Positions 45,496 to 64,000 of a DNA stretch of 64,000 nucleotides are shown here, one piece after another. Both the position numbers and the translations under genes were made by a program. Numbering within the stretch: the first letter of the stretch is position 1; each line of letters begins with the position of its first letter. The DNA comes from Salminus brasiliensis (taxonomy: Eukaryota; Chordata; Actinopteri; Characiformes; Bryconidae): NCBI RefSeq assembly GCF_030463535.1, contig NC_132894.1, positions 13,165,433 to 13,229,432 on the forward strand, in the 5' to 3' direction. The notes beneath the pieces were generated by a model, which ran no database searches, had not been told where the DNA came from, and saw nothing but the letters and a program-made list of their open reading frames with translations.

Positions 45496-45499
45496 ACGT

Positions 45500-45739
45500 G
45501 CAGCGTACTGCCACATCTATACACAGGCACCGCCCCACTATTGATCGGCGCGGTGGCTTTGACCTGCTCCGTTTCCGACCTGGGCCGGTTCACCCATGCT
45601 TTTGCGACTTCGTAGCCCCGAGCTCCCTCAGAAGCACCAAATCAATACAGAACGGACACCCGATAGACGAAGTCCATGACAGCCCAAAATCCCAGCCTCC
45701 CGATAACTTGGATTACAGGCGCGCGCCACTTCGCCCGGC
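45500..45739 (-). pseudogene. Degenerate 7SL RNA copy at array edge
   Basis: The 5' end (45,739 reading left) is the normal GCCGGGCGAAGTGGCGCGCG, and the S-domain core around the helix 8 loop is recognisable. About 25 nt of the Alu-domain region (around gaactcaaacggtccgcc in other copies) is deleted. The CCTAAGGAGG region is altered, the 3' stem is scrambled, and no T-run terminator follows. The 5' flank nevertheless matches the intact copies. Probably not functional. Confidence 0.85.
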
Positions 45740-46940
45740 GGCAGTCGAGTTGATTTGGGGAGGTTTTAGCCTGCAGATACAAACTCACGCTGCCCACTGG
45801 TGGGCAAACGAGGAGTTACACAGACCTAAAGAGTCTCTTACAGACAGCGCCCTCTGGTCTTTTATCTTTTAGTTTACATTGCTTGTTACATTGAGTTCTG
45901 TGCTTCATCTTCACCAGTTATTCAGTTTTCAGGTAAGATGCCACGTTGTTTTAGGCGAACATGAAACCTGTTCACTGTAGTCTACTGACAGGGCGGTTAA
46001 AACCTCTGTAGACTAGTAGTACATTTCATCATTTTAGACTGAATGAATAACAGTCATGAACTCAACTGCTTTGAAATGTGTAAATCAGGAGTTACAAGAA
46101 TAAACTTCAGCATGTTTAGTGCTCTGTCAAAAATACAACCATTCTATCTCATTTCTATATTCTTCCATGCTCATTTTGTTATGTCCTTTCTCATCAGGCT
46201 TGTAACTCTCTTCTTCCTTTTTGATTTCTTTTCTTTTTGTGTTTTGGGATTTTTTTCATGATATTTTCAAGGCTGTTCTGGTTTAGATAACATTTTCCCA
46301 ACTGTGTTCAAATGTCAGACCATGGATGAGTCAGGTCTGTTAGCAATATTTTTTCACACACATGTTTATTACAGTATGACTCCTGTAATATAAAGACAAT
46401 GATCTTGTTCAGTATCAATACTTGCAGGCCTATTTGTGCTACACCACAAAGTAGCATTAATAAGTTTAGTTACAGTCTAAACTTGGTATTAGTATACCAG
46501 CTTTAAAGTAAAAAGAAAACAACAATGCACTGAAATTGACATTTTTAGTCTCTTTTTAAAAGTCTAAGATGTTCTCACGGAAAATACTAGCGTGTCAACT
46601 GGCTTAAACTTTTTTCCGCATAAAAAACGTTCTCTTTACTCCCATGGCACAGTTTGACTGACACAAAGGCAAACAACAAGCCCTGTGTATTGTGCATACA
46701 CTTTCCTTCTGATTCGCCATTTGTACATTTATTTTTATGCGGCCAAAAGTGTTTTTCTTCAGTCATTTTGTTTTTAAGATAGTCATTTCTTTTGCTCTAC
46801 TCTACCTCTGTAGAAAAAGTAGTGCTTCTGCCATGTGTACTTTTTCTTCAGACCATTAAAATCCTAAAGACTAATCGTTAAATTGTTTCTGTCCGAATAT
46901 TGCAAGGAAACAAGTGTTTATAGTATTGGTTGTGATGTTT

Positions 46941-46964
46941 AAGTAGTACATTTCATAATTTTAG
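46941..46964. other. Deletion junction within the array
   Basis: After gtgatgttt the sequence jumps to agtagtacatttcataattt, which normally lies just over 700 bp further on. The skipped part comprises the end of the spacer, the whole 7SL gene and its upstream flank. One unit has therefore lost its 7SL gene, directly beside the LINE at 46,965. Confidence 0.75.
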
Positions 46965-48902
46965 AATCAGAATCAGAATCTCTTTATTTCACCAAGTATG
47001 TTACTCATACAAGGAATTTGTCTTGGTGAGAGCAACACGTATGACAAGTAACAAAAAACACAGAACACAGTCTTAAACTAAAGGAAAATGACACTAAACA
47101 ATAAATAGGGTAGGAGATAAATTAAAAAAGTAAAAAGTACTAAAGGTAATAAAGAGCTGAAAATATATTTACAGAAAAGAAAAGAACATCTGTACAGGTG
47201 TGCAAATAGTCATAGTGCAAAATAGGCAGAGTGCAAAATAGCTGTTCAGTCCGGTTTGGTACAGTTCAGTTGTAAGTTTAGAGGTTTACAGTGGGAGGTG
47301 ACCACTGTGATTGAGGAGCGCTACAGCTCTGGGGAAGAAGCTGTTAGCATTACGTGTTGTGCTGGTTTTGATGGACCGCAGTCTTCTACCCGAGGGGAGT
47401 GTCTGGAAGAGGAGGTGTCCAGGATGTGAGGGGTCAGATGTAATCTTGCCAGCCCGCTTCCTCACCCTGCTGGTGTAGATCTGCTGAAGTGATGGCAGGT
47501 TACATCCGATGATCCTCTCTGCTGTCCTGATGATGCGCTGGAGTTTGGTTCTTTCTTGTGAGGTGGAGGAACCAAACCAGATAGTTATGGAGGCTGTGAT
47601 AATGGACTCGATGATCGCTGTGTAGAACTGGATCATCAGGGTCTGTGGCAGGTTGAATTTCTTGAGCTGTCTCAAGAAGAACATTCTTTGTTGAGCTTTC
47701 TTGATGATGGAGATGGTGTTTTTCTCCCATTTCAAGTCTCTGGAAATGGTGGTGCCCAGGAACTTGAGTGACTCCACCATTGATACTGCAGTGTTGTTGA
47801 TGTGGAGGGGGGGAAGGGTGGGTGGATTGCGTCGGAAGTCCACCACCATCTCTACAGTCTTTTCTGTGTTTAGCAGCAGGTGGTTGTTGCTGCACCAGGA
47901 CACCAGCTGCTCAATTTCCTTTCTGTAAGCAGACTCATCACCGTTGGCTATGAGGCCCACCAGAGTGGAGTCATCTGCAAATTTCAGGATCTTTACAGCT
48001 GGATCTTTGGAGACACAGTCATTAGTGTAGAGGCTGAAGAGAAGGGGTGAAAGAACACAACCCTGAGGGACTCCAGTACTGAGTGTCCGGAGGTCTGAAG
48101 TGTGCTTCCCCAGCCGCACCTGCTGTCTCCTGTCTGTCAGAAAATCCACGATCCACCGACACATGGAGTCTGGCACTGACAGCTGGGAGAGTTTGGCCTG
48201 AAGAAGCTGCGGCACAACAGTGTTAAAGGCCGAGCTAAAGTCCACAAACAAAACCCTAGCATAGTTTCCATGGCTGTCGAGATGTTGCAGGATAAAGTGC
48301 AGGGTCAGGTTGACCACATCATCGATAGACCTGTTTGCTCGGTACGCAAACTGCAAGGGGTCCAGCAGGGGATCTGTGATGGACTTCAGGTGGGCTAGGA
48401 TCAGGCGTTCAAAGACCTTCATGACTACAGAGGTCAGGGCGACAGGCCTGTAATCATTCAGTCTGGTGATGGTGGATTTCTTGGGAACTGGAATGATGGT
48501 GGAGGTTTTGAAGCAGGCTGGAACAGAGCAGAGTTCCAGTGATCTGTTAAAAATGTCTGTAAACACTGGAGCTAGTTGGTCACAGCAGTGTTTTAGGGTG
48601 GATGGAGAGACTGAGTCGGGCCCGGGGGCTTTCCTCACCTTCTGTCTGCTGAAGAGCCTGTGAACATCCTGCAGGTTGATGCAGAGATGAGCAGGAGGCA
48701 GAGGTGAGAGGGCCAGTGTGGGGGTGGAGGTGGAGGGGGGTGATGGGTGGTAGACGGTCTGATTGTCTTTTGTGAGTTCAAATCTGCAGTAGAACTCATT
48801 CAGGTCATTGGTGAGGTGTCGGTCGTTCAGAAGGTGGGGGGTCTTTCTCACCTTGTGACCAGTGAGAAGCTGAAGGCCTTTCCAGGCTGAAGATGGGTCG
48901 TA
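46965..48902 (-). mobile_element. 5'-truncated L2-like non-LTR retrotransposon
   Basis: The 3' end is on the left, with a short (AATCAG)n-type tail followed by tctttatttcaccaagtatg. The 5' end breaks off inside the ORF at about 48,902, where array spacer (aatgaataatagtcatgaac) resumes. The endonuclease domain is lacking because of 5' truncation, the usual result of incomplete target-primed reverse transcription. Only three or four bases of the target (actg) seem lost at the insertion point. Confidence 0.85.
47286..48851 (-). CDS. LINE reverse transcriptase, 5'-truncated (521 aa open)
   Basis: Reverse-transcriptase part of ORF2 of a non-LTR element. Visible motifs in order are APGPDSVSPSTLKHC, YRPVALTSVVMKVFERLI (motif 2), DPLQFAYRANRSIDD, VLFVDFSSAFNTV (motif A), GVPQGCVLSPLLFSLY (motif B), KFADDSTLVGLI (motif C, FADD intact) and a C-terminal region ending LLNHSGHLPL. 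The frame is open upstream of the first Met to the truncation point (DPSSAWKGLQLLTGHK), so the true protein began further 5' with an endonuclease that is absent here. The open frame suggests a fairly recent insertion. Placement in the L2/CR1 group is from overall motif wording, not a search. Confidence 0.85.
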   Translation of the reverse strand: MRKTPHLLNDRHLTNDLNEFYCRFELTKDNQTVYHPSPPSTSTPTLALSPLPPAHLCINLQDVHRLFSRQKVRKAPGPDSVSPSTLKHCCDQLAPVFTDIFNRSLELCSVPACFKTSTIIPVPKKSTITRLNDYRPVALTSVVMKVFERLILAHLKSITDPLLDPLQFAYRANRSIDDVVNLTLHFILQHLDSHGNYARVLFVDFSSAFNTVVPQLLQAKLSQLSVPDSMCRWIVDFLTDRRQQVRLGKHTSDLRTLSTGVPQGCVLSPLLFSLYTNDCVSKDPAVKILKFADDSTLVGLIANGDESAYRKEIEQLVSWCSNNHLLLNTEKTVEMVVDFRRNPPTLPPLHINNTAVSMVESLKFLGTTISRDLKWEKNTISIIKKAQQRMFFLRQLKKFNLPQTLMIQFYTAIIESIITASITIWFGSSTSQERTKLQRIIRTAERIIGCNLPSLQQIYTSRVRKRAGKITSDPSHPGHLLFQTLPSGRRLRSIKTSTTRNANSFFPRAVALLNHSGHLPL

Positions 48903-49884
48903 TAATGAATAATAGTCATGAACTCAACTGCTTTGAAATGTGTAAATCAGGAGTTACAAGAATAAACTTCAGCATGTTTAGTGCTCTGTCAAAAATACAA
49001 CCATTCTATCTCATTTCTATATTCTTCCATGCTCATTTTGTTATGTCCTTTCTCATCTGGCTTGTAACTCTCTTCTTCCTTTTTGATTTGTTTTGTGTTT
49101 TTTTTTTCCTGATATTTTCAAGGCGGTTCTGGTTTAGATAACATTTTCCCAAATGTGTTCAAATGTCAGACCATGGATGAGTCAGGTCTGTTAGCAATAT
49201 TTTTTCACACACATGTTTATTACAGTATGACTCCTGTAATATAAAGACAATGATCTTGTTCAGTATCAATACTTGCAGGCCTATTTGTGCTACACCACAA
49301 AGTAGCATTAATAAGTTTAGTTACAGTCTAAACTTGGTATTAGTATACCAGCTTTAAAGTAAAAAGAAAACAACAATGCACTGAAATTGACATTTTTAGT
49401 CTCTTTTTAAAAGTCTAAGATGTTCTCACGGAAAATACTAGCGTGTCAACTGGCTTAAACCTTTTTCTGCATAAAAAACGTTCTCTTTACTCCCATGGCA
49501 CAGTTTGACTGACACAAAGGCAAACAACAGGCCCTGTGTATTGTGCATACACTTTTCTTCTGATTCGCCATTTCAGTCATTTTGTTTTTAAGATAGTCAT
49601 TTCTTTTGCTCTACTCTGTAGAGAAAGTAGTGCTTCTGCCATGTGTACTTTTTCTTCAGACCATTAAAATCCTAAAGACTAATCGTTAAATTATTTCTGT
49701 CCGAATATTGCAAGGAAACAAGTGTTTGTAGTATTGGTTGTGATGTTTAAGCCTGTAACCCTTGCTTCCATTTATGTGCGGGTTTTGCAGTGGAATCTAA
49801 ACCTGTTAGTGAATGCTGAGGACAATTGTTTCATCAGTGTCAGTGAAAAGAATGTATTATTTGAGTTTAAACCACAGTGAATGA

Positions 49885-50183
49885 AAAAGACTGAGTCCCG
49901 CTGTCTTGCTCAGGCTGCACTGCAGGGTCTATTCACAGGCGCCATCCCACTACTGATCGGCACGGGGGCTTTGACCTGCTCCGTTTCCGACCTGGGCCGG
50001 TTCACCCCTCCTTAGACGACCTGGTGGACCCGAGCTCCCTCAGAAACACCATATCGACACCGACCTTAGCGCGGACACCCGATCAACATAGTCCACGACA
50101 GCCCAGAATCCCTGAACTCAAACGGTCCGCCAGTCTCAGCCTCCCAGTAACTTGGATTACAGGCGCGCGCCACTTCGCCCGGC
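49885..50183 (-). ncRNA. 7SL (SRP) RNA gene, copy 2
   Basis: RNA scaffold of the signal recognition particle, which targets secretory and membrane proteins to the ER. The - strand begins GCCGGGCGAAGTGGCGCGCG at 50,183, followed by CCTGTAATCC and GGGAGGCTGAG (Alu domain, internal A-box region) and GTTCTGGGCTGTAGTG (B-box-like). The S domain has helix 6 with a GGAG tetraloop (SRP19 site). Helix 8 reads TGAACCGGCCCAGGTCGGAA followed by ACGGAGCAGG, identical to the human core that binds SRP54. The 3' end CAGCGGGACTCAGTC leads into TTTTT (49,884-49,888), a Pol III terminator. Length is about 299 nt, as in human 7SL. The helix 6 3' strand reads CTCGGGTCCACC. Confidence 0.96.
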
Positions 50184-50330
50184 GGCAGTCGAGTTGATTT
50201 GGGGAGGTTTTAGCCTGCAGATACAAACTCACGCTGCCCACTGGTGGGCAAACGAGGAGTTACACAGACCTAAAGAGTCTCTTACAGACAGCGCCCTCTG
50301 GTCTTTTATCTTTTAGTTTACATTGCTTGT
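50184..50330 (-). promoter_or_regulatory. 7SL upstream promoter region (repeated in each unit)
   Basis: Reading upstream from the 7SL start, a TAAAA TATA-like element lies at about -29 to -25. GCGTGAGT lies at about -51 to -44, where human 7SL has its ATF/CRE site, but no canonical TGACGTCA is seen. A quasi-palindrome gcccaccagtgggc follows at about -66 to -53, and a GC-rich block, ccagagggcgctgtc, lies near -120. The same block precedes the other copies (for example 45,740-45,890, 51,820-51,965, 53,420-53,565, 58,405-58,550, 60,007-60,150, 61,606-61,750 and 63,244-63,390). Its role is inferred by position. Confidence 0.6.
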
Positions 50331-51520
50331 TACATTGAGTTCTGTGCTTCATCTTCACCAGTTATTCAGTTTTCAGGTAAGATGCCACGTTGTTTTAGGC
50401 GAACATGAAACCTGTTCACTGTAGTCTACTGACAGGGCGGTTAAAACCTCTGTAGACTAGTAGTACATTTCATCATTTTAGACTGGATGAATAATAGTCA
50501 TGAACTCAACTGCTTTGAAATGTGTAAATCAGGAGTTACAAGAATAAACTTCAGCATGTTTAGTGCTCTGTCAAAAATACAACCATTCTATCTCATTTCT
50601 ATATTCTTCCATGCTCATTTTGTTATGTCCTTTCTCTTCTGGCTTGTAACTCTCTTCTTCCTTTTTGATTTCTTTTCTTTTTGTGTTTTGGGATTTTTTT
50701 CCTGATATTTTCAAGGCTGTTCTGGTTTAGATAACATTTTCCCAACTGTGTTCAAATGTCAGACCATGGATGAGTCAGGTCTGTTAGCAATATTTTTTCA
50801 CACACATGTTTATTACAGTATGACTCCTGTAATATAAAGACAATGATCTTGTTCAGTATCAATACTTGCAGGCCTATTTGTGCTACACCACAAAGTAGCA
50901 TTAATAAGTTTAGTTACAGTCTAAACTTGGTATTAGTATACCAGCTTTAAAGTAAAAAGAAAACAACAATGCACTGAAATTGACATTTTTAGTCTCTTTT
51001 TAAAAGTCTAAGATGTTCTCACGGAAAATACTAGCGTGTCAACTGGCTTAAACTTTTTTCCGCATAAAAAACGTTCTCTTCACTCCCATGGCACAGTTTG
51101 ACTGACACAAAGGCAAACAACAGGCCCTGTGTATTGTGCATACACTTTCCTTCTGATTCGCCATTTGTACATTTATTTTTATGCGGCCAAAAGTGTTTTT
51201 CTTCAGTCATTTTATTTTTAAGATAGTCATTTATTTTGCTCTATTCTGCCTCTGTAGAAAAATTAGTGCTTCTGCCATGTGTACTTTTTCTTCAGACCAT
51301 TAAAATCCTAAAGACTAATCGTTCAATTGTTTCTGTCCGAATATTGCAAGGAAACAAGTGTTTGTAGTATTGGTTGTGATGTTTAAGCCTGTAACCCTTG
51401 CTTCCATTTATGTGCGGGTTTTGCAGTGGAATCTAAACCTGTTAGTGAATGCTGAGGACAATTGTTTCATCAGTGTCAGTGAAAAGAATGTATTATTTGA
51501 GTTTAAACCACAGTGAATGA

Positions 51521-51819
51521 AAAAGACTGAGTCCCGCTGTCTTGCTCAGGCTGCACTGCAGGGTCTATTCACAGGCGCCATCCCACTACTGATCGGCACG
51601 GGGGCTTTGACCTGCTCCGTTTCCGACCTGGGCCGGTTCACCCCTCCTTAGACGACCTGGTGGACCCGAGCACCCTCAGGAGCACCATATCAATACCGAA
51701 CTTAGCGCGGACACCCGATCAACATAGTCCACGACAGCCCAGAACCCCTGAACTGAAACGGTCCGCCAGCCTCAGCCTCCCAGTAACTTGGATTACAGGC
51801 GCGCGCCACTTCGCCCGGC
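51521..51819 (-). ncRNA. 7SL (SRP) RNA gene, copy 3 (variant helix 6 loop)
   Basis: Full-length 299-nt copy, with 5' end GCCGGGCG at 51,819 and a T5 terminator at 51,520-51,524. The helix 8 core is unchanged. It is the most divergent intact copy in the S domain. The helix 6 tetraloop is GGTG (51,671-51,674) instead of GGAG, and the 5' strand of helix 6 reads GGTGCTCCTGAG. Because the GNAR-type loop binds SRP19, this copy may be impaired or a non-functional allele (inference). Confidence 0.93.
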
Positions 51820-53120
51820 GGCAGTCGAGCTGATTTGGGGAGGTTTTAGCCTGCAGATACAAACTCACGCTGCCCACTGGTGGGCAAACGAGGAGTTACA
51901 CAGACCTAAAGAGTCTCTTACAGACAGCGCCCTCTGGTCTTTTATCTTTTAGTTTACATTGCTTGTTACATTGAGTTCTGTGCTTCATTTTCACCAGTTA
52001 TTCAGTTTTCAGGTAAGATGCCACGTTGTTTTAGGCGAACATGAAACCTGTTCACTGTAGTCTACTGACAGGGCGGTTAAAACCTCTGTAGACTAGTAGT
52101 ACATTTCATCATTTTAGACTGAATGAATAATAGTCATGAACTCAACTGCTTTGAAATGTGTAAATCAGGAGTTACAAGAATAAACTTCAGCATGTTTAGT
52201 GCTCTGTCAAAAATACAACCATTCTATCTTATTTCTATATTCTTCCATGCTCATTTTGTTATGTCCTTTCTCATCTGGCTTGTAACTCTCTTCTTCCTTT
52301 TTGATTTCTTTTCTTTTTGTGTTTTGGGATTTTTTTTCCTGATATTTTCAAGGCTGTTCTGGTTTAGATAACATTTTCCCAACTGTGTTCAAATGTCAGA
52401 CCATGGATGAGTCAGGTCTGTTAGCAATATTTTTTCACACACATGTTTATTACAGTATGACTCCTGTAATATAAAGACAATGATCTTGTTCAGTATCAAT
52501 ACTTGCAGGCCTATTTGTGCTACACCACAAAGTAGCATTAATAAGTTTAGTTACAGTCTAAACTTGGTATTAGTATACCAGCTTTAAAGTAAAAAGAAAA
52601 CAACAATGCACTGAAATTGACATTTTTTGTCTCTTTTTAAAAGTCTAAGATGTTCTCACGGAAAATACTAGCGTGTCAACTGGCTTAAACCTTTTTCTGC
52701 ATAAAAAACGTTCTCTTTACTCCCATGGCACAGTTTGACTGACACAAAGGCAAACAACAGGCCCTGTGTATTGTGCATACACTTTTCTTCTGATTCGCCA
52801 TTTCAGTCATTTTGTTTTTAAGATAGTCATTTCTTTTGCTCTACTCTGCCTCTGTAGAAAAAGTAGTGCTTCTGCCATGTGTACTTTTTCTACAGACCAT
52901 TAAAATCCTAAAGACTAATCGTTAAATTGTTTCTGTCCGAATATTGTAAGGAAACAAGTGTTTGTAGTATTGGTTATGATGTTTAAGCCTGTAACCCTTG
53001 CTTCCATTTATGTGCGGGTTTTGCAGTGGAATCTAAACCTGTTAGTGAATGCTGAGGACAATTGTTTCATCAGTGTCAGTGAAAAGAATGTATTATTTGA
53101 GTTTAAACCACAGTGAATGA

Positions 53121-53419
53121 AAAAGACTGAGTCCCGCTGTCTTGCTCAGGCTGCACTGCAGGGTCTATTCACAGGCGCCATCCCACTACTGATCGGCACG
53201 GGGGCTTTGACCTGCTCCGTTTTCGACCTGGGCCGGTTCACCCCTCCTTAGACGACCTGGTGTACCCGAGCTCCCTCAGAAACACCATATCCATACCGAA
53301 CTTAGCGCGGACACCCGATCGACATAGTCCACTACAGCCCAGAACCCCTGAACTCAAACGGTCCGCCAGCCTCAGCCTCCGGATAACTTGGATTACAGGC
53401 GCGCGCCACTTCGCCCGGC
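53121..53419 (-). ncRNA. 7SL (SRP) RNA gene, copy 4 (variant helix 8 loop)
   Basis: Full-length 299-nt copy, 5' end at 53,419 and T5 terminator at 53,120-53,124. The helix 8 tetraloop is GAAA rather than GGAA (+ strand ccgttttcgacc at about 53,217-53,228), still a GNRA-type loop. The helix 6 3' strand reads CTCGGGTACACC. An L2-like element is inserted about 295 bp upstream of its start. Confidence 0.95.
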
Positions 53420-53714
53420 GGCAGTCGAGTTGATTTGGGGAGGTTTTAGCCTGCAGATACAAATTCACGCTGCCCACTGGTGGGCAAACGAGGAGTTACA
53501 CAGACCTAAAGAGTCTCTTACAGACAGCGCCCTCTGGTCTTTTATCTTTTAGTTTACATTGCTTGTTACATTGAGTTCTGTGCTTCATCTTCACCAGTTA
53601 TTCAGTTTTCAGGTAAGATGCCACGTTGTTTTAGGCGAACATGAAACCTGTTCACTGTAGTCTACTGACAGGGCGGTTAAAACCTCTGTAGACTAGTAGT
53701 ACATTTCATCATTT

Positions 53715-56700
53715 AAGATAAGATAAGATAAGATAAGATAATCCTTTATTAGTCCCGCAGTGGGGAAATTTACAGTGTAGCAGCAGAAAGGGATAGCAGG
53801 ACACTCAGTTACAAAAAATTTGGATAAATAATTTACACTATATACACAATATATATACACAATATAAATAAGAATTAAAAAAAAAAAGCAATAAACAATA
53901 AACAATATTATTTACAGTAAAAGACTCTTAATTGCACATGGGGATGGGATATTGCACATAGTATTCCCTGAACATGAACATGTGTGTGTAGTTAAGTGTG
54001 TGTGTATGTGGTCCGTTGGGAGCAGTGTTTGTTGTGCAGTCTGACGGCAGCAGGAAGGAAGGACCTGCGATACCGCTCCTTCACACACTTGGGGTGAAGC
54101 AGTCTGTCGCTAAAGGAGCTGCCCAGTGCTGCCAGAGTCTCATGCATGGGGTGGGAGCTGTTCTTCCGCATGGATGCCAGCTTGGCTGTCATCCTCCTGT
54201 CTCCCACCACCTGCACTGGGTCTAAGAAGCACCCCAGGACAGAGCCGGCCCTCTTTATGAGTTTGTCCAGTCTCTTCTTATCTGCCGTCGAGATGCTACT
54301 ACCCCAGCAGACCACTCCATAAAAGATGGCAGATGCCACCACTGTGTCGAAGAACGTCCTCAGAAGTGCTCCCTGCACTCCAAAGGACCTCAATCTCCTC
54401 AGCAGGTAGAGTCTGCTCTGGCCTTTCTTATAGAGAGCAGCAGTGTTGACTGACCAGTCCAGTTTGTTGTTCAGATGAACACCCAGGTATTTATAAGAGT
54501 CCACACTCTCGATGTTCATACCCCGGATGTTCACTGATGGAGGGGGGTGTCTGCACCTGCGGAAATCCACTACCAGTTCTTTGGTTTTTCCAGCGTTTAT
54601 CTGCAGATGGTTCTGCAGACACCAGTCCACAAAGTCCTGAATAAGTTCTCTGTACTCGCTGTCCTCCTCATTGGATATGAGGCCGACGATTGCTGAGTCA
54701 TCAGAGAACTTCTGGAGGTGACAGGTTGGTGAGCTGTACATGAAGTCAGCAGTGTACAGGGTGAAGAGGAACGGTGCCAAGACCGTTCCTTGAGGGGCTC
54801 CTGTGCTGCTGACCACCAAGTCAGAGACACAGTCCCGTGCCCTCACATACTGTGGTCGGTTGGTGAGGTAGTCCAGTATCCAGTTTGACAGGTGACTGTC
54901 CACTCCACAATGTCCCAACTTGTCCTTTAGGAGGCCTGGCTGTATGGTGTTAAAAGCACTGGAGAAATCGAAGAAGGTGATCCTCACAGTGCTGCCGGGC
55001 TTCTCCAGGTGAGAAAGAGCTCTGTGTAGAAGATAGATGACAGCATCATCCACCCCGACACCAGGCTGGTAGGCGAACTGAAGAGGGTCCATGGATGGGC
55101 TCACCAGAGGGCGGATGTGGTTGAGGACCAGCCTCTCCAGTGACTTCATTAGATGGGAAGTCAGTGCCACCGGCCTGTAGCTGTTTAGGTCCTTTGGGTG
55201 CTGTGTTTTGGGCACAGGTACCACACAAGATGTTTTCCACAGCTGTGGTACTCTTCCCAGTTTCAGGCTCATGTTGAACAAATGCTCAACTACCCTGCAC
55301 AGCTGATCAGCGCAGGACTTGAGGAGCCTGGCGCTGATTCCATCAGGACCTGTAGCTTTCTTAGGCTTGATCTTCCTCAGCTCATTTCTCACCTGGGTTG
55401 TTGTGAAGGACAGGTTGGAGCAGGGGGGCTGGGTGCTGGAATGTGTGAATGGTTGGTTGATGCTGCCAGACGATGAGCCATTAGGGGATGATGGTGGTGA
55501 TGATTGTGAGCCAGAAGTTCTGAGAGAAGAAGAAGGGGGAGGGCAGCATGATGGTAGTGCTGCTGAGTGGGGATACAGCAGGGGTGTCTGTGTGGGGGCA
55601 GGGCTAGGTGATTGATCAAATCTGTTGAAAAATAGATTGAGATCATTCACCCACTTCTGGTCCCCCACCACCTGGGAGTTGGACTTTGTGTGGCCAGAGA
55701 TGGTTTGAAGGCCTTTCCACACTCCCCTGATGTTGTTCTGCTGCAGCTGTTCCTCCAGCTTCCTCTTGTAGCTGGCTTTCCCCTCCCTGATCTTCCTTCT
55801 CAGTTCCTTCTGCACAGCTTTCAGCTCATCCTTGTCACCAGATCTGAAGGCCCTCTTTTTCGCTTTTAGGAGAGCCTTTATATCTGGATTAATCCATGGC
55901 TTGTTGTTGGAAAAACACCGAACAGTCTTGGTGGGCACGGTGTTATCCACACAGAAGTTGACGTAGTCCGTAATGCAGTGAGTGAGATTGTCAATGTCCT
56001 CCCCATTAGGATCACACAGTTCTTCCCACACCGTTGTTTCGAAGCAGTCCTTCAGAGCCTCCTCAGACTCCTTAGACCATTTCTTCACTGTACGGGTGAC
56101 AGCTGGTTCCCTATGTACAATGGGTTTGTACACAGGCAGAAGATGAACCAGACAGTGATCAGATCTTCCAAGGGGAGGGAGAGGTGACGAGTGGTATGCC
56201 TCCTTTGTGTTGGCAAAAAGCAGGTCCAGTGTTTTCATGTCTCTGGTGTGGCAGGTTACATACTGGGTGAAGGTGGACAGAGTGGAGGATGGAGAAGCAT
56301 GGTTGAAGTCTCCGGAGATAAGGAGGAGGGCCTGCGGGTGCTGTGTCTGCAGCCTGCACACAGCTGAGTGCAGGGCATCACAGGCCGAGTCAGCGTTAGC
56401 AGAGGGGGGGATGTACGCAGCTATCATGATAACGTGCGAGAATTCCCTCGGCAGATAGTACGGCCTCATGCTAACGGCCAACAGTTCAATGTTCTTACAG
56501 CAGATCTGCTCCTTAATAGTGATGTGCCCAGGGTTACACCATCTATCATTCACAAATACTGCCAGTCCGCCTCCCTTCCTCTTACCGCTCTCCTCCGTCC
56601 TGTCCGCCCGACTGAGGTGAAATCCTTCCACAGATACGTGCGTGTCTGGGGTCAGCGTGGTTAGCCAGGTCTCTGTGAACACCATGATGCTGCACTCCCG

Positions 56701-57096
56701 GTATTCCCTCTGATGTCGCGTTAGCGCCGCCAGCTCGTCCATCTTATTGGGGAGCGACCTCACGTTCCCCATGACTACAGAAGGAAGAGCGGGCTTGTAG
56801 CGTCTCCTCCGGGCGCGACACAGAGCTCCAGCCCGGCTCCCCCGCCGCCTCCTCCTCAGCTCGCGGGGGATGTCGTGCCTCTCGCGCGGCAGCACAGCAG
56901 CGCTGCTGAGCGCTAACAGCTGGTCCCTGGTGTAAACAATAGGCGCGCGACTCCGCACGGGATCTCCAGACACGGTCGTAAACATGGAAAAAAGTAGCGT
57001 AGAAACCAGAAAAATCACCACGCTTTTGTTGTCCATTGTGCCTACAGTCATAAACAACACTAAACTACCAAAGAAACTTAGCTTAAAAACTTTTAA
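53715..57096 (-). mobile_element. Near-full-length L2-like non-LTR retrotransposon
   Basis: The 3' end on the left is a (GATAA)n tail (53,715-53,742) followed by tcctttattagtcccgcagt, a 3' UTR typical of many fish LINE copies. The right (5') end lies at about 57,096, just 36 bp beyond the ORF start, so the 5' UTR is short or slightly truncated. Array spacer flanks it on both sides (catcattt on the left, attttagactg on the right), with at most a 4-bp ATTT duplication. One uninterrupted ORF covers most of the element. Confidence 0.9.
53992..57060 (-). CDS. LINE ORF2: APE endonuclease and reverse transcriptase (1,022 aa)
   Basis: Single intact ORF of an L2/CR1-group non-LTR retrotransposon. It starts with a hydrophobic stretch and an Arg-rich stretch (RRRRRGSRAG). 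The apurinic-type endonuclease follows at about residues 90-310, with GNVRSLPNKMDEL, FTETWL, AAYIPPSAN, ISGDFNH, KTLDLLFAN and GRSDHCLVHLL. The reverse transcriptase lies at about 570-870: KPKKATGPDGIS, YRPVALTSHLMKSLERLV, FFDFSSAFNTIQP (motif A), GAPQGTVLAPFLFTLYTAD (motif B) and QKFSDDSAIVGLI (motif C, SDD with both Asp present). A C-terminal region ends with the usual LPAAVRLHNKH. No frameshift or stop is seen, so the copy could be young. No separate ORF1 is visible in the element. Confidence 0.93.
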   Translation of the reverse strand: MLFMTVGTMDNKSVVIFLVSTLLFSMFTTVSGDPVRSRAPIVYTRDQLLALSSAAVLPRERHDIPRELRRRRRGSRAGALCRARRRRYKPALPSVVMGNVRSLPNKMDELAALTRHQREYRECSIMVFTETWLTTLTPDTHVSVEGFHLSRADRTEESGKRKGGGLAVFVNDRWCNPGHITIKEQICCKNIELLAVSMRPYYLPREFSHVIMIAAYIPPSANADSACDALHSAVCRLQTQHPQALLLISGDFNHASPSSTLSTFTQYVTCHTRDMKTLDLLFANTKEAYHSSPLPPLGRSDHCLVHLLPVYKPIVHREPAVTRTVKKWSKESEEALKDCFETTVWEELCDPNGEDIDNLTHCITDYVNFCVDNTVPTKTVRCFSNNKPWINPDIKALLKAKKRAFRSGDKDELKAVQKELRRKIREGKASYKRKLEEQLQQNNIRGVWKGLQTISGHTKSNSQVVGDQKWVNDLNLFFNRFDQSPSPAPTQTPLLYPHSAALPSCCPPPSSSLRTSGSQSSPPSSPNGSSSGSINQPFTHSSTQPPCSNLSFTTTQVRNELRKIKPKKATGPDGISARLLKSCADQLCRVVEHLFNMSLKLGRVPQLWKTSCVVPVPKTQHPKDLNSYRPVALTSHLMKSLERLVLNHIRPLVSPSMDPLQFAYQPGVGVDDAVIYLLHRALSHLEKPGSTVRITFFDFSSAFNTIQPGLLKDKLGHCGVDSHLSNWILDYLTNRPQYVRARDCVSDLVVSSTGAPQGTVLAPFLFTLYTADFMYSSPTCHLQKFSDDSAIVGLISNEEDSEYRELIQDFVDWCLQNHLQINAGKTKELVVDFRRCRHPPPSVNIRGMNIESVDSYKYLGVHLNNKLDWSVNTAALYKKGQSRLYLLRRLRSFGVQGALLRTFFDTVVASAIFYGVVCWGSSISTADKKRLDKLIKRAGSVLGCFLDPVQVVGDRRMTAKLASMRKNSSHPMHETLAALGSSFSDRLLHPKCVKERYRRSFLPAAVRLHNKHCSQRTTYTHT

Positions 57097-58105
57097 ATTT
57101 TAGACTGAATGAATAACAGTCATGAACTCAACTGCTTTGAAATGTGTAAATCAGGAGTTACAAGAATAAACTTCAGCATGTTTAGTGCTCTGTCAAAAAT
57201 ACAACCATTCTATCTCATTTCTGTATTCTTCCATGCTTCTTTTGTTATGTCCTTTCTCATCTGGCTTGTAACTCTCTTCTTCCTTTTTGATCTCTTTTCT
57301 TTTTGTGTTTTGGCATTTTTTTCCTGATATTTTCAAGGCTGTTCTGGTATAGATAACATTTTCCCAACTGTGTTCAAATGTCAGACCATGGATGAGTCAG
57401 GTCTGTTAGCAATATTTTTTCACACACATGTTTATTACAGTATGACTCCTGTAATATAAAGACAATGATCTTGTTCAGTATCAATACTTGCAGGCCTATT
57501 TGTGCTACACCACAAAGTAGCATTAATAAGTTTAGTTACAGTCTAAACTTGGTATTAGTATACCAGCTTTAAAGTAAAAAGAAAACAACAATGCACTGAA
57601 ATTGACATTTTTAGTCTCTTTTTAAAAGTCTAAGATGTTCTCACGGAAAATACTAGCGTGTCAACTGGCTTAAACCTTTTTCTGCATAAAAAACGTTCTC
57701 TTTACTCCCATGGCACAGTTTGACTGACACAAAGGCAAACAACAGGCCCTGTGTATTGTGCATACACTTTCCTTCTGATTCGCCATTTCAGTCATTTTGT
57801 TTTTAAGATAGTCATTTCTTTTGCTCTACTCTGCCTCTGTAGAGAAAGTAGTGCTTCTGCCATGTGTACTTTTTCTTCAGACCATTAAAATCCTAAAGAC
57901 TAATCATTAAATTGTTTCTGTCCGAATATTGCAAGGAAACAAGTGTTTGTAGTATTGGTTGTGATGTTTAAGCCTGTAACCCTTGCTTCCATTTATGTGC
58001 GGGTTTTGCAGTGGAATCTAAACCTGTTAGTGAATGCTGAGGACAATTGTTTCATCAGTGTCAGTGAAAAGAATGTATTATTTGAGTTTAAACCACAGTG
58101 AATGA

Positions 58106-58404
58106 AAAAGACTGAGTCCCGCTGTCTTGCTCAGGCTGCACTGCAGGGTCTATTCACAGGCGCCATCCCACTACTGATCGGCACGGGGGCTTTGACCTGC
58201 TCCGTTTCCGACCTGGGCCGGTTCACCCCTCCTTAGACGACCTGGTGTACCCGAGCTCCCTCAGAAACACCATATCCATACCGAACTTAGCGCGGACACC
58301 CGATCAACATAGTCCACTACAGCCCAGAACCCCTGAACTCAAACGGTCCGCCAGCCTCAGCCTCCCGATAACTTGGATTACAGGCGCGCGCCACTTCGCC
58401 CGGC
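58106..58404 (-). ncRNA. 7SL (SRP) RNA gene, copy 5
   Basis: Intact 299-nt copy with 5' end at 58,404 and T5 terminator at 58,105-58,109. Helix 6 has loop GGAG with 3' strand CTCGGGTACACC, the same allele as copies 4 and 7. The helix 8 loop is GGAA. Alu-domain start GCCGGGCGAAGTGGCGCGCG. Confidence 0.96.
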
Positions 58405-59707
58405 GGCAGTCGAGTTGATTTGGGGAGGTTTTAGCCTGCAGATACAAACTCACGCTGCCCACTGGTGGGCAAACGAGGAGTTACACAGACCTAAAGAGTC
58501 TCTTACAGACAGCGCCCTCTGGTCTTTTATCTTTTAGTTTACATTGCTTGTTACATTGAGTTCTGTGCTTCATCTTCACCAGTTATTCAGTTTTCAGGTA
58601 AGATGCCACGTTGTTTTAGGCGAACATGAAACCTGTTCACTGTAGTCTACTGACAGGGCGGTTAAAACCTCTGTAGACTAGTAGTACATTTCATCATTTT
58701 AGACTGAATGAATAATAGTCATGAACTCAACTGCTTTGAAATGTGTAAATCAGGAGTTACAAGAATAAACTTCAGCATGTTTAGTGCTCTGTCAAAAATA
58801 CAACCATTCTATCTCATTTCTATATTCTTCCATGCTTCTTTTGTTATGTCCTTTCTCATCAGGCTTGTAACTCTCTTCTTCCTTTTTGATTTCTTTTCTT
58901 TTTGTGTTTTGGGATTTTTTTTTTCCTGATATTTTCAAGGCGGTTCTGGTTTAGATAACATTTTCCCAAATGTGTTCAAATGTCAGACCATGCATGAGTC
59001 AGGTCTATTAGCAATATTTTTTCATTCACATGTTTATTACAGTATGACTCCTGTAATATAAAGACAATGATCTTGTTCAGTATCAATACTTGCAGGCCTA
59101 TTTGTGCTACACCACAAAGTAGCATTAATAAGTTTAGTTACAGTCTAAACTTGGTATTAGTATACCAGCTTTAAAGTAAAAAGAAAACAACAATGCACTG
59201 AAATGGACATTTTTAGTCTCTTTTTAAAAGTCTAAGATGTTCTCACGGAAAATACTAGCGTGTCAACTGGCTTAAACTTTTTTCTGCATAAAAAACGTTC
59301 TCTTTACTCCCATGGCACAGTTTGACTGACACAAAGGCAAACAACAGGCCCTGTGTATTGTGCATACACTTTCCTTCTGATTCGCCATTTCAGTCATTTT
59401 GTTTTTAAGATAGTCATTTCTTTTGCTCTACTCTGCCTCTGTAGAAAAAGTAGTGCTTCTGCCATGTGTACTTTTTCTTCAGACCATTAAAATCCTAAAG
59501 ACTAATCGTTAAATTGTTTCTGTCCGAATATTGTAAGGAAACAAGTGTTTGTAGTATTGGTTGTGATGTTTAAGCCTGTAACCCTTGCTTCCATTTATGT
59601 GCGGGTTTTGCAGTGGAATCTAAACCTGTTAGTGAATGCTGAGGACAATTGTTTCATCAGTGTCAGTGAAAAGAATGTATTATTTGAGTTTAAACCACAG
59701 TGAATGA

Positions 59708-60006
59708 AAAAGACTGAGTCCCGCTGTCTTGCTCAGGCTGCACTGCAGGGTCTATTCACAGGCGCCATCCCACTACTGATCGGCACGGGGGCTTTGACCT
59801 GCTCCGTTTCCGACCTGGGCCGGTTCACCCCTCCTTAGACGACCTGGTGGTCCCGAGCTCCCTCAGAAACACCATATCGATACCGACCTTAACGCGGACA
59901 CCCGATCAACATAGTCCACGACAGCCCAGAACCCCTGAACTCAAACGGTCCGCCAGCCTCAGCCTCCCAGTAACTTGGATTACAGGCGCGCGCCACTTCG
60001 CCCAGC
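59708..60006 (-). ncRNA. 7SL (SRP) RNA gene, copy 6
   Basis: Intact-length copy (299 nt) with 5' end at 60,006 and T5 terminator at 59,707-59,711. It differs at RNA position 3 (GCTGGGCG instead of GCCGGGCG), which may weaken the closing stem. The helix 6 3' strand is CTCGGGACCACC, the human-like allele, with a GGAG loop. Helix 8 is standard. Confidence 0.95.
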
Positions 60007-61306
60007 GGCAGTCGAGTTGATTTAGGGAGGTTTTAGCCTGCAGATACAAACTCACGCTGCCCACTGGTGGGCAAACGAGGAGTTACACAGACCTAAAGAG
60101 TCTCTTACAGACAGCGCCCTCTGGTCTTTTATCTTTTAGTTTACATTGCTTGTTACATTGAGTTCTGTGCTTCATCTTCACCAGTTATTCAGTTTTCAGG
60201 TAAGATGCCACGTTGTTTTAGGCGAACATGAAACCTGTTCACTGTAGTCTACTGACAGGGCGGTTAAAACCTCTGTAGACTAGTAGTACATTTCATCATT
60301 TTAGACTGAATGAATAACAGTCATGAACTCAACTGCTTTGAAATGTGTAAATCAGGAGTTACAAGAATAAACTTCAGCATGTTTAGTGCTCTGTCAAAAA
60401 TACAACCATTCTATCTCATTTCTGTATTCTTCCATGCTTCTTTTGTTATGTCCTTTCTCATCTGGCTTGTAACTCTCTTCTTCCTTTTTGATCTCTTTTC
60501 TTTTTGTGTTTTGGCATTTTTTTCCTGATATTTTCAAGGCTGTTCTGGTATAGATAACATTTTCCCAACTGTGTTCAAATGTCAGACCATGGATGAGTCA
60601 GGTCTGTTAGCAATATTTTTTCACACACATGTTTATTACAGTATGACTCCTGTAATATAAAGACAATGATCTTGTTCAGTATCAATACTTGCAGGCCTAT
60701 TTGTGCTACACCACAAAGTAGCATTAATAAGTTTAGTTACAGTCTAAACTTGGTATTAGTATACCAGCTTTAAAGTAAAAAGAAAACAACAATGCACTGA
60801 AATTGACATTTTTAGTCTCTTTTTAAAAGTCTAAGATGTTCTCACGGAAAATACTAGCGTGTCAACTGGCTTAAACCTTTTTCTGCATAAAAAACGTTCT
60901 CTTTACTCCCATGGCACAGTTTGACTGACACAAAGGCAAACAACAGGCCCTGTGTATTGTGCATACACTTTCCTTCTGATTCGCCATTTCAGTCATTTTG
61001 TTTTTAAGATAGTCATTTCTTTTGCTCTACTCTGCCTCTGTAGAGAAAGTAGTGCTTCTGCCATGTGTACTTTTTCTTCAGACCATTAAAATCCTAAAGA
61101 CTAATCGTTAAATTATTTCTGTCCGAATATTGCAAGGAAACAAGTGTTTGTAGTATTGGTTGTGATGTTTAAGCCTGTAACCCTTGCTTCCATTTATGTG
61201 CGGGTTTTGCAGTGGAATCTAAACCTGTTAGTGAATGCTGAGGACAATTGTTTCATCAGTGTCAGTGAAAAGAATGTATTATTTGAGTTTAAACCACAGT
61301 GAATGA

Positions 61307-61605
61307 AAAAGACTGAGTCCCGCTGTCTTGCTCAGGCTGCACTGCAGGGTCTATTCACAGGCGCCATCCCACTACTGATCGGCACGGGGGCTTTGACCTG
61401 CTCCGTTTCCGACCTGGGCCGGTTCACCCCTCCTTAGACGACCTGGTGTACCCGAGCTCCCTCAGAAACACCATATCCATACCGAACTTAGCGCGGACAC
61501 CCGATCAACATAGTCCACTACAGCCCAGAACCCCTGAACTCAAACGGTCCGCCAGCCTCAGCCTCCCGATAACTTGGATTACAGGCGCGCGCCACTTCGC
61601 CCGGC
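61307..61605 (-). ncRNA. 7SL (SRP) RNA gene, copy 7
   Basis: Intact 299-nt copy, 5' end at 61,605 and T5 terminator at 61,306-61,310. It carries the same alleles as copy 5 (CTCGGGTACACC in helix 6, GGAG and GGAA loops) and sits in a unit nearly identical to that of copy 5. Confidence 0.96.
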
Positions 61606-62944
61606 GGCAGTCGAGTTGATTTGGGGAGGTTTTAGCCTGCAGATACAAACTCACGCTGCCCACTGGTGGGCAAACGAGGAGTTACACAGACCTAAAGAGT
61701 CTCTTACAGACAGCGCCCTCTGGTCTTTTATCTTTTAGTTTACATTGCTTGTTACATTGAGTTCTGTGCTTCATCTTCACCAGTTATTCAGTTTTCAGGT
61801 AAGATGCCACGTTGTTTTAGGCGAACATGAAACCTGTTCACTGTAGTCTACTGACAGGGCGGTTAAAACCTCTGTAGACTAGTAGTACATTTCATCATTT
61901 TAGACTGAATGAATAATAGTCATGAACTCAACTGCTTTGAAATGTGTAAATCAGGAGTTACAAGAATAAACTTCAGCATGTTTAGTGCTCTGTCAAAAAT
62001 ACAACCATTCTATCTCATTTCTATATTCTTCCATGCTTCTTTTGTTATGTCCTTTCTCATCAGGCTTGTAACTCTCTTCTTCCTTTTTGATTTCTTTTCT
62101 TTTTGTGTTTTGGGATTTTTTTTCCTGATATTTTCAAGGCGGTTCTGGTTTAGATAACATTTTCCCAAATGTGTTCAAATGTCAGACCATGGATGAGTCA
62201 GGTCTGTTAGCAATATTTTTTCACACACATGTTTATTACAGTATGACTCCTGTAATATAAAGACAATGATCTTGTTCAGTATCAAATACTTGCAGGCCTA
62301 TTTGTGCTACACCACAAAGTAGCATTAATAAGTTTAGTTACAGTCTAAACTTGGTATTAGTATACCAGCTTTAAAGTAAAAAGAAAACAACAATGCACTG
62401 AAATTGACATTTTTAGTCTCTTTTTAAAAGTCTAAGATGTTCTCACGGAAAATACTAGCGTGTCAACTGGCTTAAACTTTTTTCCGCATAAAAAACGTTC
62501 TCTTCACTCCCATGGCACAGTTTGACTGACACAAAGGCAAACAACAGGCCCTGTGTATTGTGCATACACTTTCCTTCTGATTCGCCATTTGTACACTTAT
62601 TTTTATGCGGCCAAAAGTGTTTTTCTTCAGTCATTTTATTTTTAAGATAGTCATTTCTTTTGCTCTACTCTGCCTCTGTAGAAAAATTAGTGCTTCTGCC
62701 ATGTGTACTTTTTCTTCAGACCATTAAAATCCTAAAGACTAATCGTTCAATTGTTTCTGTCCGAATATTGCAAGGAAACAAGTGTTTGTAGTATTGGTTG
62801 TGATGTTTAAGCCTGTAACCCTTGCTTCCATTTATGTGCGGGTTTTGCAGTGGAATCTAAACCTGTTAGTGAATGCTGAGGACAATTGTTTCATCAGTGT
62901 CAGTGAAAAGAATGTATTATTTGAGTTTAAACCACAGTGAATGA

Positions 62945-63243
62945 AAAAGACTGAGTCCCGCTGTCTTGCTCAGGCTGCACTGCAGGGTCTATTCACAGGC
63001 GCCATCCCACTACTGATCGGCACGGGGGCTTTGACCTGCTCCGTTTCCGACCTGGGCCGGTTCACCCCTCCTTAGACGACCTGGTGGTCCCGAGCTCCCT
63101 CAGAAACACCATATCGACACCGACCTTAGTGCGGACACCCGATCAACATAGTCCACTACAGCCCAGAACCCCTGAACTCAAACGGTCCGCCAGCCTCAGC
63201 CTCCCGATAACTTGGATTACAGGCGCGCGCCACTTCGCCCGGC
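62945..63243 (-). ncRNA. 7SL (SRP) RNA gene, copy 8
   Basis: Intact 299-nt copy, 5' end GCCGGGCG at 63,243 and T5 terminator at 62,944-62,948. The helix 6 3' strand is CTCGGGACCACC, as in copy 6, with a GGAG loop, and the helix 8 loop is GGAA. In its upstream flank the quasi-palindrome is followed by aaaacgagg (gggaaaacg at about 63,307-63,315) instead of gggcaaacg. Confidence 0.96.
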
Positions 63244-64000
63244 GGCAGTCGAGTTGATTTGGGGAGGTTTTAGCCTGCAGATACAAACTCACGCTGCCCA
63301 CTGGTGGGAAAACGAGGAGTTACACAGACCTAAAGAGTCTCTTACAGACAGCGCCCTCTGGTCTTTTATCTTTTAGTTTACATTGCTTGTTACATTGAGT
63401 TCTATGCTTCATCTTCACCAGTTATTCAGTTTTCAGGTAAGATGCCACGTTGTTTTAGGCGAACATTAAACCTGTTCACTGTAGTCTACTGACAGGGCGG
63501 TTAAAACCTCTGTAGACTAGTAGTACATTTCATCATTTTAGACTGAATGAATAATAGTCATGAACTCAACTGCTTTGAAATGTGTAAATCAGGAGTTACA
63601 AGAATAAACTTCAGCATGTTTAGAGCTCTGTCAAAAATACAACCATTCTATCTCATTTCTATATTCTTCCATGCTTCTTTTGTTATGTCCTTTCTCATCA
63701 GGCTTGTAACTCTCTTCTTCCTTTTTGATTTCTTTTCTTTTTGTGTTTTGGGATTTTTTTTTTCCTGATATTTTCAAGGCGGTTCTGGTTTAGATAACAT
63801 TTTCCCAACTGTGTTCAAATGTCAGACCATGCATGAGTCAGGTCTATTAGCAATATTTTTTCATTCACATGTTTATTACAGTATGACTCCTGTAATATAA
63901 AGACAATGATCTTGTTCAGTATCAATACTTGCAGGCCTATTTGTGCTACACCACAAAGTAGCATTAATAAGTTTAGTTACAGTCTAAACTTGGTATTAGT

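What the first reader, a model, noticed from the sequence alone, without database searches (positions are those of the whole stretch)
45500..64000. Tandem array of 7SL (signal recognition particle) RNA genes
The - strand of each ~1.6-kb unit contains a full 7SL RNA gene: Alu domain, helix 6 GGAG loop, helix 8 GGAA loop with the SRP54-binding core, and a T5 terminator. Seven copies look complete and the array continues past the window. 7SL is usually known as a low-copy dispersed gene in vertebrates, whereas 5S rRNA and some snRNAs occur as long tandem arrays. An rDNA-like 7SL array in a fish is, to my knowledge, not a standard description. The array may be a major source of SRP RNA, or an amplified satellite that captured a 7SL gene.
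Basis: partly seen in the sequence, partly recalled or inferred. Interest (0 to 1): 0.92.

Follow-up and report, generated by a model that had tools for sequence, protein, structure and literature searches.

The report
Fish 7SL RNA genes in arrays
In this fish-like genome the intact-looking genes found for 7SL RNA, the RNA core of the machine that sends proteins to the cell's secretion route, sit in two tandem clusters on one chromosome, much like ribosomal 5S genes, and the two clusters have drifted into distinguishable types.

Summary
Rfam Metazoa_SRP gives seven full-length hits (254.6-265.1 bits) on the - strand at about 1.6-kb steps, plus a decayed edge copy at 45496-45739. The window is C17:13165433-13229432 of a 1.07-Gb assembly. 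The array runs on to 21 full-length genes over about 43 kb. A second cluster of 17 full-length 7SL genes lies about 277 kb away on the opposite strand. A genome-wide search for the helix-8 core found 44 places; 40 are in the two clusters, and the 4 others are degraded or partial. 7SK gave one match. The clusters differ at five fixed gene positions, two of them in box A. In the window array, variation keeps base pairs more often than random changes would (p 0.007) and is concentrated in gene positions 37-157. An 871-bp piece of spacer has strong matches only in this array, so it is not a dispersed satellite. Best reading: a two-cluster 7SL multigene family supplying SRP RNA, turned over by unequal crossing-over. 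Expression was not testable; specialised types (maternal versus somatic) remain possible.

The parts
62945..63243 (-). 7SL RNA gene, full length
   Evidence: RF00017 265.1 bits, 1-299/299
61307..61605 (-). 7SL RNA gene, full length; identical to the gene at 58106
   Evidence: RF00017 260.6 bits; identity
59708..60006 (-). 7SL RNA gene, full length
   Evidence: RF00017 262.5 bits
58106..58404 (-). 7SL RNA gene, full length
   Evidence: RF00017 260.6 bits
53121..53419 (-). 7SL RNA gene, full length; helix-8 loop GAAA instead of GGAA; LINE B lies about 300 bp upstream
   Evidence: RF00017 256.8 bits; motif
51521..51819 (-). 7SL RNA gene, full length; helix-6 loop GGUG instead of GGAG
   Evidence: RF00017 254.6 bits; motif
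49885..50183 (-). 7SL RNA gene, full length
   Evidence: RF00017 261.9 bits
45496..45739 (-). Decayed 7SL copy at the left array edge: first 46 nt array-like, the rest about 19% diverged at comparable invariant sites, with deletions and no T-run terminator
   Evidence: 98.8 bits; alignment; 35 of 186 sites; flank
61606..62944 (.). Representative intergenic spacer of the unit; an 871-bp piece of it (61930-62800) has strong matches only in this array
61606..61735 (-). 5' flank / putative upstream promoter: TAAAA near -30 and a TGTGTAACTCCT block; 92 of 130 aligned bases (71%) shared with the flank of one second-cluster gene (12933013)
   Evidence: promoter role inferred
46965..48903 (-). LINE A: 5'-truncated non-LTR retrotransposon (reverse transcriptase) in the spacer
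   Evidence: RVT_1 E 3.2e-32; junctions
46943..46944 (.). Deletion junction: unit position 1206 joined to about 278, removing one 7SL gene; shared with a second copy of this block 19.1 kb away
53716..57096 (-). LINE B: non-LTR retrotransposon, open frame 1035 aa, (TAAGA)n tail, dispersed in the genome
   Evidence: RVT_1 E 1.2e-27
63244..64000 (-). Start of the next spacer; the array continues to about C17:13254270 with 14 more full-length genes

Best explanation
SHOWN: the genome carries 7SL as a multigene family in two clusters on one chromosome. Cluster 1 (window): 21 full-length genes in 1.6-kb head-to-tail units plus one decayed edge copy. Cluster 2: 17 full-length genes in irregular units, about 277 kb away on the other strand. 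The copies found elsewhere are few and degraded. INFERRED: each gene is transcribed by Pol III from internal boxes A/B and upstream elements, stops at the T5 run and folds into SRP RNA; many copies meet the demand for SRP RNA, as 5S arrays do for 5S rRNA. Cluster 1 arose from a cluster-2-like gene, was amplified and is kept alike by unequal crossing-over and gene conversion, with breakpoints often inside the gene. Its box A and helix 3 have changed, so its output or regulation may differ from that of cluster 2.
For: Seven full-length covariance hits in the window and 14 + 17 more in the fetched stretches (two of them lie across stretch ends and are seen whole). 40 of 44 core matches and 39 of 43 5'-domain matches fall in the two clusters. 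The outside core matches at C17:29.02 (two), C17:31.84 and C19:26.55 score 209.9, 187.4, 122.6 and 74.2 bits; in both 29.02 copies the first ~20 nt, which hold box A, are missing or broken. 7SK gave one match, 19 of 17993 candidates scored. Variation in cluster 1 breaks fewer pairs than random changes: 5 of 26 changes against 10.5 expected, p 0.007; slid-partner controls p 0.13-0.59; with the window copies alone 2 of 21 against 8.4, p 0.0006. T5 follows 21 of 21 array-1 genes and 17 of 17 array-2 genes; box B is GGTTCTGGGCT in 18 of 21 and 17 of 17. Units with no spacer substitutions between them carry different gene haplotypes, and the reverse. A 19.1-kb-spaced block duplication carries LINE A copies 99.95% identical. 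Cluster 1 is one clade, bootstrap 85, drawn inside the cluster-2 genes.
Against: No transcript, Pol III or SRP-binding data. Cluster 1 genes are not more conserved than their spacer: pi 0.025 against 0.012 over 18 units. In cluster 2 the pair-keeping test is not significant: 11 of 38 changes broken, 13.1 expected, p 0.24. Restricted to changes at paired positions, the window test weakens to p 0.01-0.17 depending on the reference. Cluster 1 has two fixed changes in box A that also unpair helix 3. Cluster 1 scores lower on the Rfam model (252.9-265.1) than cluster 2 (267.6-285.8) among copies seen whole. The covariance search scored only 26 of 12637 first-look candidates, so a strongly diverged functional 7SL elsewhere is not excluded.
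Confidence: 0.82

Rival explanations
1. Cluster 2 is the working SRP RNA locus, and the window array is a mostly silent or weakly used amplified side branch.
For: Cluster 2 has the box A sequence GGCGCGGTGG in 15 of 17 copies, the form given for human 7SL in PMC7245038, and higher Rfam scores; cluster 1 has GGCGAAGTGG in 21 of 21. Gene diversity in cluster 1 exceeds spacer diversity. Of 21 cluster-1 genes, 2 have a changed helix-6 loop and 2 a changed helix-8 loop.
Against: Array-1 changes keep base pairs. Flanks are strongly conserved: 1 variable site in 150 bp of 3' flank and 3 in 150 bp of 5' flank, against 49 in 1041 bp of mid spacer, over 18 units. T5 is kept in 21 of 21.
Confidence: 0.3
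2. An amplified satellite that happened to capture a 7SL gene.
For: Regular 1.6-kb units, block duplication and edge decay.
Against: For an 871-bp piece of spacer, 23 of 26 matches are in this array and the other 3 are short, 69-76% matches. A second 7SL cluster with different spacers exists. The upstream flank is 71% alike between one gene of each cluster, so gene and promoter probably moved together.
Confidence: 0.05
3. Assembly artefact (false tandem duplication).
For: Tandem repeats are error-prone in assemblies, and read depth could not be checked.
Against: 12 distinct genes among 21 and 17 distinct units among 18; different LINE insertions in different units; no N in the window or in the stretches L001-L019; a second, differently organised cluster.
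Confidence: 0.05

Closest known systems
Metazoan SRP (7SL) RNA, Rfam RF00017
   Same: Full-length covariance match, Alu-domain UGUAA, helix-6 and helix-8 loops, box B, T-run terminator
   Different: Organised as two tandem clusters with 38 full-length copies. Human 7SL is given as three named loci (PMC7073466, passage seen), and non-primate mammals as tens to a few hundred predicted copies, which may include pseudogenes (PMC13197249, passages seen)
5S rDNA arrays, including the maternal/somatic 5S types of zebrafish
   Same: Pol III gene in head-to-tail units, many copies, two loci with sequence types
   Different: Another RNA; stage-specific use is known for zebrafish 5S (PMC11075544, passages seen) and untested here. 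This genome's own 5S genes were not compared (no answer)
Maternal U1/U6 snRNA genes on zebrafish chromosome 4
   Same: Multicopy small-RNA genes concentrated on one chromosome, with types (PMC11075544, passages seen)
   Different: No SRP RNA is mentioned in that paper's main text (terms 'signal recognition' and 'SRP' 0 times)
7SL-derived SINEs (Alu, B1, hagfish SINE1)
   Same: 7SL sequence in many copies
   Different: Here complete genes in tandem, not dispersed retrocopies (hagfish SINE1: PMC7245038, passages seen; the rest recalled)

Membership tests
Metazoan SRP RNA (RF00017) | Full-length match to sequence-structure model above the curated score | tested here: met
   7 of 7 genes, 254.6-265.1 bits against 70; the edge copy reaches 98.8 but is decayed
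Metazoan SRP RNA (RF00017) | Alu-domain UGUAA, helix-6 GGAG, helix-8 GGAA | tested here: met
   Window: UGUAA 7 of 7, GGAG 6 of 7, GGAA 6 of 7; whole array 1: 21, 19 and 19 of 21
Metazoan SRP RNA (RF00017) | Pol III box A as in human 7SL | tested here: not met
   Array 1 has GGCGAAGTGG in 21 of 21 against the human GGCGCGGTGG quoted in PMC7245038. That paper gives the hagfish box as also departing from the human one, so this does not exclude membership of the RNA family
Metazoan SRP RNA (RF00017) | Box B and T-run terminator | tested here: met
   Box B GGTTCTGGGCT in 18 of 21; T5 in 21 of 21
Metazoan SRP RNA (RF00017) | Transcribed and bound by SRP proteins | not testable with these tools
   No RNA or protein data
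Tandem small-RNA gene array under concerted evolution | Head-to-tail units; copies group by array | tested here: met
   Unit spacing; array 1 is one clade, bootstrap 85; array 2 is not a clade
Tandem small-RNA gene array under concerted evolution | Gene more conserved than spacer | tested here: not met
   pi gene 0.025, spacer 0.012 over 18 units; driven by positions 37-157
Maternal/somatic dual-type system | Two loci with fixed sequence differences | tested here: met
   Five positions without a shared base: 9, 10, 59, 98, 241 (21 against 17 genes)
Maternal/somatic dual-type system | Stage-specific expression of the types | not testable with these tools
   No expression data held
Dispersed satellite with captured gene | Spacer repeat found apart from the gene | tested here: not met
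   871-bp spacer piece: 23 of 26 matches in this array, 3 weak short ones elsewhere

The most novel reading that the evidence does not exclude
The two 7SL clusters are functionally distinct SRP RNA types (for instance a maternal or tissue-specific type from the tandem array and a housekeeping type from the other cluster), marked by fixed differences in box A / Alu-domain helix 3 and helix 5: an SRP counterpart of the dual 5S rRNA system, which would mean heterogeneous signal recognition particles in one animal.
Probability: 0.25. Interest if true: 0.88.

Novelty: new variant of a known kind. Interest (0 to 1): 0.7.

Why it matters
7SL in vertebrates is usually discussed as a few genes plus many retrocopies. 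Here the intact-looking genes found are in two rDNA-like clusters on one chromosome, with array-specific diagnostic bases. That makes SRP RNA dosage, concerted evolution and possible SRP heterogeneity directly testable from ordinary small-RNA reads, and it would extend the list of arrayed Pol III genes in fishes.

Tried and rejected
Satellite capture: rejected, an 871-bp spacer piece is strong only in the array. Site-specific LINE (R2-like) targeting of the 7SL unit: two LINE insertions that differ in sequence lie within about 10 bp of each other in the unit, but LINE B is dispersed (40 of 2051 candidates scored), and the 3' junctions of all 30 loci returned show no target shared with the array (29 outside the array, some of them duplicates of one insertion). 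Treated as coincidence or a loose preference. LINE A was not searched in the genome. A second RNA gene in the spacer: in the one 2-kb stretch tested at a lax threshold only hits far below their cut-offs. Fish sequence in viral or prokaryote collections: one pattern, 0 matches in each. Import of array-2 alleles as the sole cause of the gene hot spot (37-157): rejected as sole cause, because high-frequency alleles 37T, 38C and 128G are absent from the 17 array-2 genes. A CpG-decay account of higher gene diversity: partly; in the five-unit test the excess is p 0.03 with and 0.18 without CpG sites. Not completed: the 5S rRNA comparison (RF00001) never got an answer; the genes between the clusters were not read.

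Literature: nine searches on 7SL copy number or arrays and one on the SRP19 loop. The titles and abstract openings listed show no description of a vertebrate 7SL tandem array; four lists were shorter than the number of papers found (20 of 1553; 15: 6 of 7; 24: 25 of 147; 29: 20 of 36), and two found nothing. Papers were seen only as passages: PMC4110674, PMC13197249, PMC9734144, PMC11075544, PMC2770079, PMC7245038, PMC8185352, PMC7073466. The library lacks most subscription journals.

Full report
OBSERVATION. The Rfam search of the window returned eight matches above threshold, all RF00017 Metazoa_SRP on the - strand: seven over the whole model (254.6-265.1 bits) and one of 98.8 bits at 45496-45739. 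Spacing of the seven is 1599-1638 bp except for one 4985-bp gap. Five complete spacers align to one another at 98.5-99.3% over ungapped columns, apart from a 37-bp indel. The gap at 53.4-58.1 kb is one unit interrupted by a near full-length LINE (53,716-57,096). A shorter LINE at 46,965-48,903 lies next to a deletion that removed a 7SL gene. The edge copy has an array-like first 46 nt and an array-like 5' flank, but the rest differs from invariant array positions at 35 of 186 comparable sites, has deletions and has no T run.

WIDER LOCUS. The window is C17:13165433-13229432 of a 1,066,335,885-bp assembly in 103 contigs. The array continues to the right for 14 more full-length genes and ends about C17:13254270, inside a spacer: 21 full-length genes plus the edge copy over about 43 kb. 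A block with LINE A and its deletion scar is present twice, 19.1 kb apart, the LINE copies 99.95% identical, and only the first has LINE B. A second cluster lies at C17:12899686-12934347 on the + strand: 17 full-length genes, irregular spacing (1.0-5.9 kb, with a repeated 1349+2233 bp pair), at least three kinds of 5' flank, and one further remnant near 12930634.

WHERE ELSE. A 34-nt helix-8 core with up to 3 mismatches has 44 places in the genome: 22 in array 1 (edge copy included), 18 in array 2, 4 elsewhere; the same pattern read backwards has 0. An 18-nt 5'-domain word with up to 2 mismatches has 43 places: 22, 17 and 4. The four outside core matches score 209.9, 187.4, 122.6 and 74.2 bits (a further 57.6-bit piece lies beside the first two). 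In the two at C17:29.02 the first ~20 nt, which hold box A, are missing or scrambled; the one at C17:31.84 has lost two internal stretches and the T run; the C19 one is partial. So no intact 7SL gene was found outside the two clusters, with the caveat that the covariance search scored only 26 of 12637 candidates (its 14 control genomes had no match over the cut-off). 7SK, another Pol III RNA, gave one match, 19 of 17993 candidates scored, so arraying is not general for Pol III RNAs here; 5S could not be compared.

TWO TYPES. Gene consensuses of the clusters differ at 14 of 299 positions; five have no shared allele (9, 10, 59, 98, 241). Array 1 reads GGCGAAGTGG where array 2 reads GGCGCGGTGG (15 of 17), the form quoted for the human box A in PMC7245038. 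The two changes also unpair two helix-3 pairs on the Rfam structure. The outside copies that can be aligned and the Rfam consensus support the array-2 state at positions 9, 10, 98 and 140; three outside copies support the array-1 state at 99 and 275, and the other differing sites are mixed. The tree puts array 1 as one clade (ultrafast bootstrap 85) inside array 2, which is not a clade; the outgroup itself is weak (32) and support for the nodes within array 2 was not examined. Array 1 is therefore probably the derived branch. In the one pair compared, the 130-bp 5' flanks are 71% alike; the gene consensuses are 95% alike.

SELECTION AND TURNOVER. Changes among the seven window genes break 2 pairs where 8.4 are expected (p 0.0006; 0.00-0.02 with each single copy as reference; slid partners 0.07-0.72). 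Counted only among changes at paired positions the result is weaker (p 0.01-0.17). For all 21 array-1 genes (12 distinct) it is 5 against 10.5 (p 0.007); for array 2, 11 against 13.1 (p 0.24). Against simple rDNA-like expectation, the array-1 gene is more variable than its spacer (pi 0.025 against 0.012, 18 units). The excess lies in gene positions 37-157 (pi 0.056; the highest 121-bp spacer window is 0.035), while positions 158-299 and the flanks are almost invariant. Variable sites in positions 1-36, 37-157 and 158-299 number 1, 22 and 2 in array 1 and 7, 18 and 13 in array 2 (counted). Units with no spacer substitutions between them carry genes that differ by 6-7 bases, and identical genes sit beside spacers that differ by up to 15. 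Four-gamete failures occur inside the gene. The simplest account is unequal crossing-over and conversion with breakpoints in the gene, maintaining a few old haplotypes; why only the 5' half is variable is not explained.

MECHANISM. Shown: gene structure, terminator (T5 after 21 of 21 array-1 genes), internal box B, two clusters, turnover. Inferred: Pol III transcription, use in SRP, dosage as the reason for many copies, and any difference in regulation from the changed box A. The GGAG loop is the SRP19 contact (PMC8185352, passage seen), so the two array-1 copies with GGUG may be impaired.

KNOWN OR NEW. Each part is known: 7SL RNA, tandem Pol III arrays (5S), dual maternal/somatic small-RNA loci in zebrafish (PMC11075544, passages seen). 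In nine full-text searches of the open library the rows listed showed no description of a vertebrate 7SL tandem array; some lists were capped and many journals are not held, and fish genome annotations may already list such copies without comment. I file it as a new variant of a known kind.

Noticed in passing
window 8267-41590: A cluster of intermediate-filament (keratin-like) genes next to the 7SL array: Pfam Filament exons, spanning about C17:13.159-13.207 Mb.
   Followed up: partly
window 49885-63243, gene positions 37-157: Within array 1, this part of the 7SL gene is four to five times more variable than the spacer while the 3' half and flanks are almost invariant; array 2 does not show the contrast. 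Unexplained.
   Followed up: partly
window 46965-48903 and 53716-57096: Two LINEs of one broad kind (about 41% aa identity in the longest stretch) inserted within about 10 bp of the same unit position; no shared target at the 30 LINE B loci read.
   Followed up: yes
L020 (C17:29019001-29029000) 4388-4678 and 6752-7043: Two convergent 7SL-like copies, 93% alike, with broken 5' domains but kept 3' ends and T4, with two tRNA-type hits and a smaller 7SL piece between them; possibly relics of an older 7SL lineage.
   Followed up: partly
window 11603-11911: Tc-type transposase fragment (HTH_Tnp_Tc3_2) inside the keratin cluster.
   Followed up: no
L010-L013 (second cluster): Array-2 genes carry at least three kinds of 5' flank, of which one lacks the TTAAAA near -30 shared by the others.
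   Followed up: no
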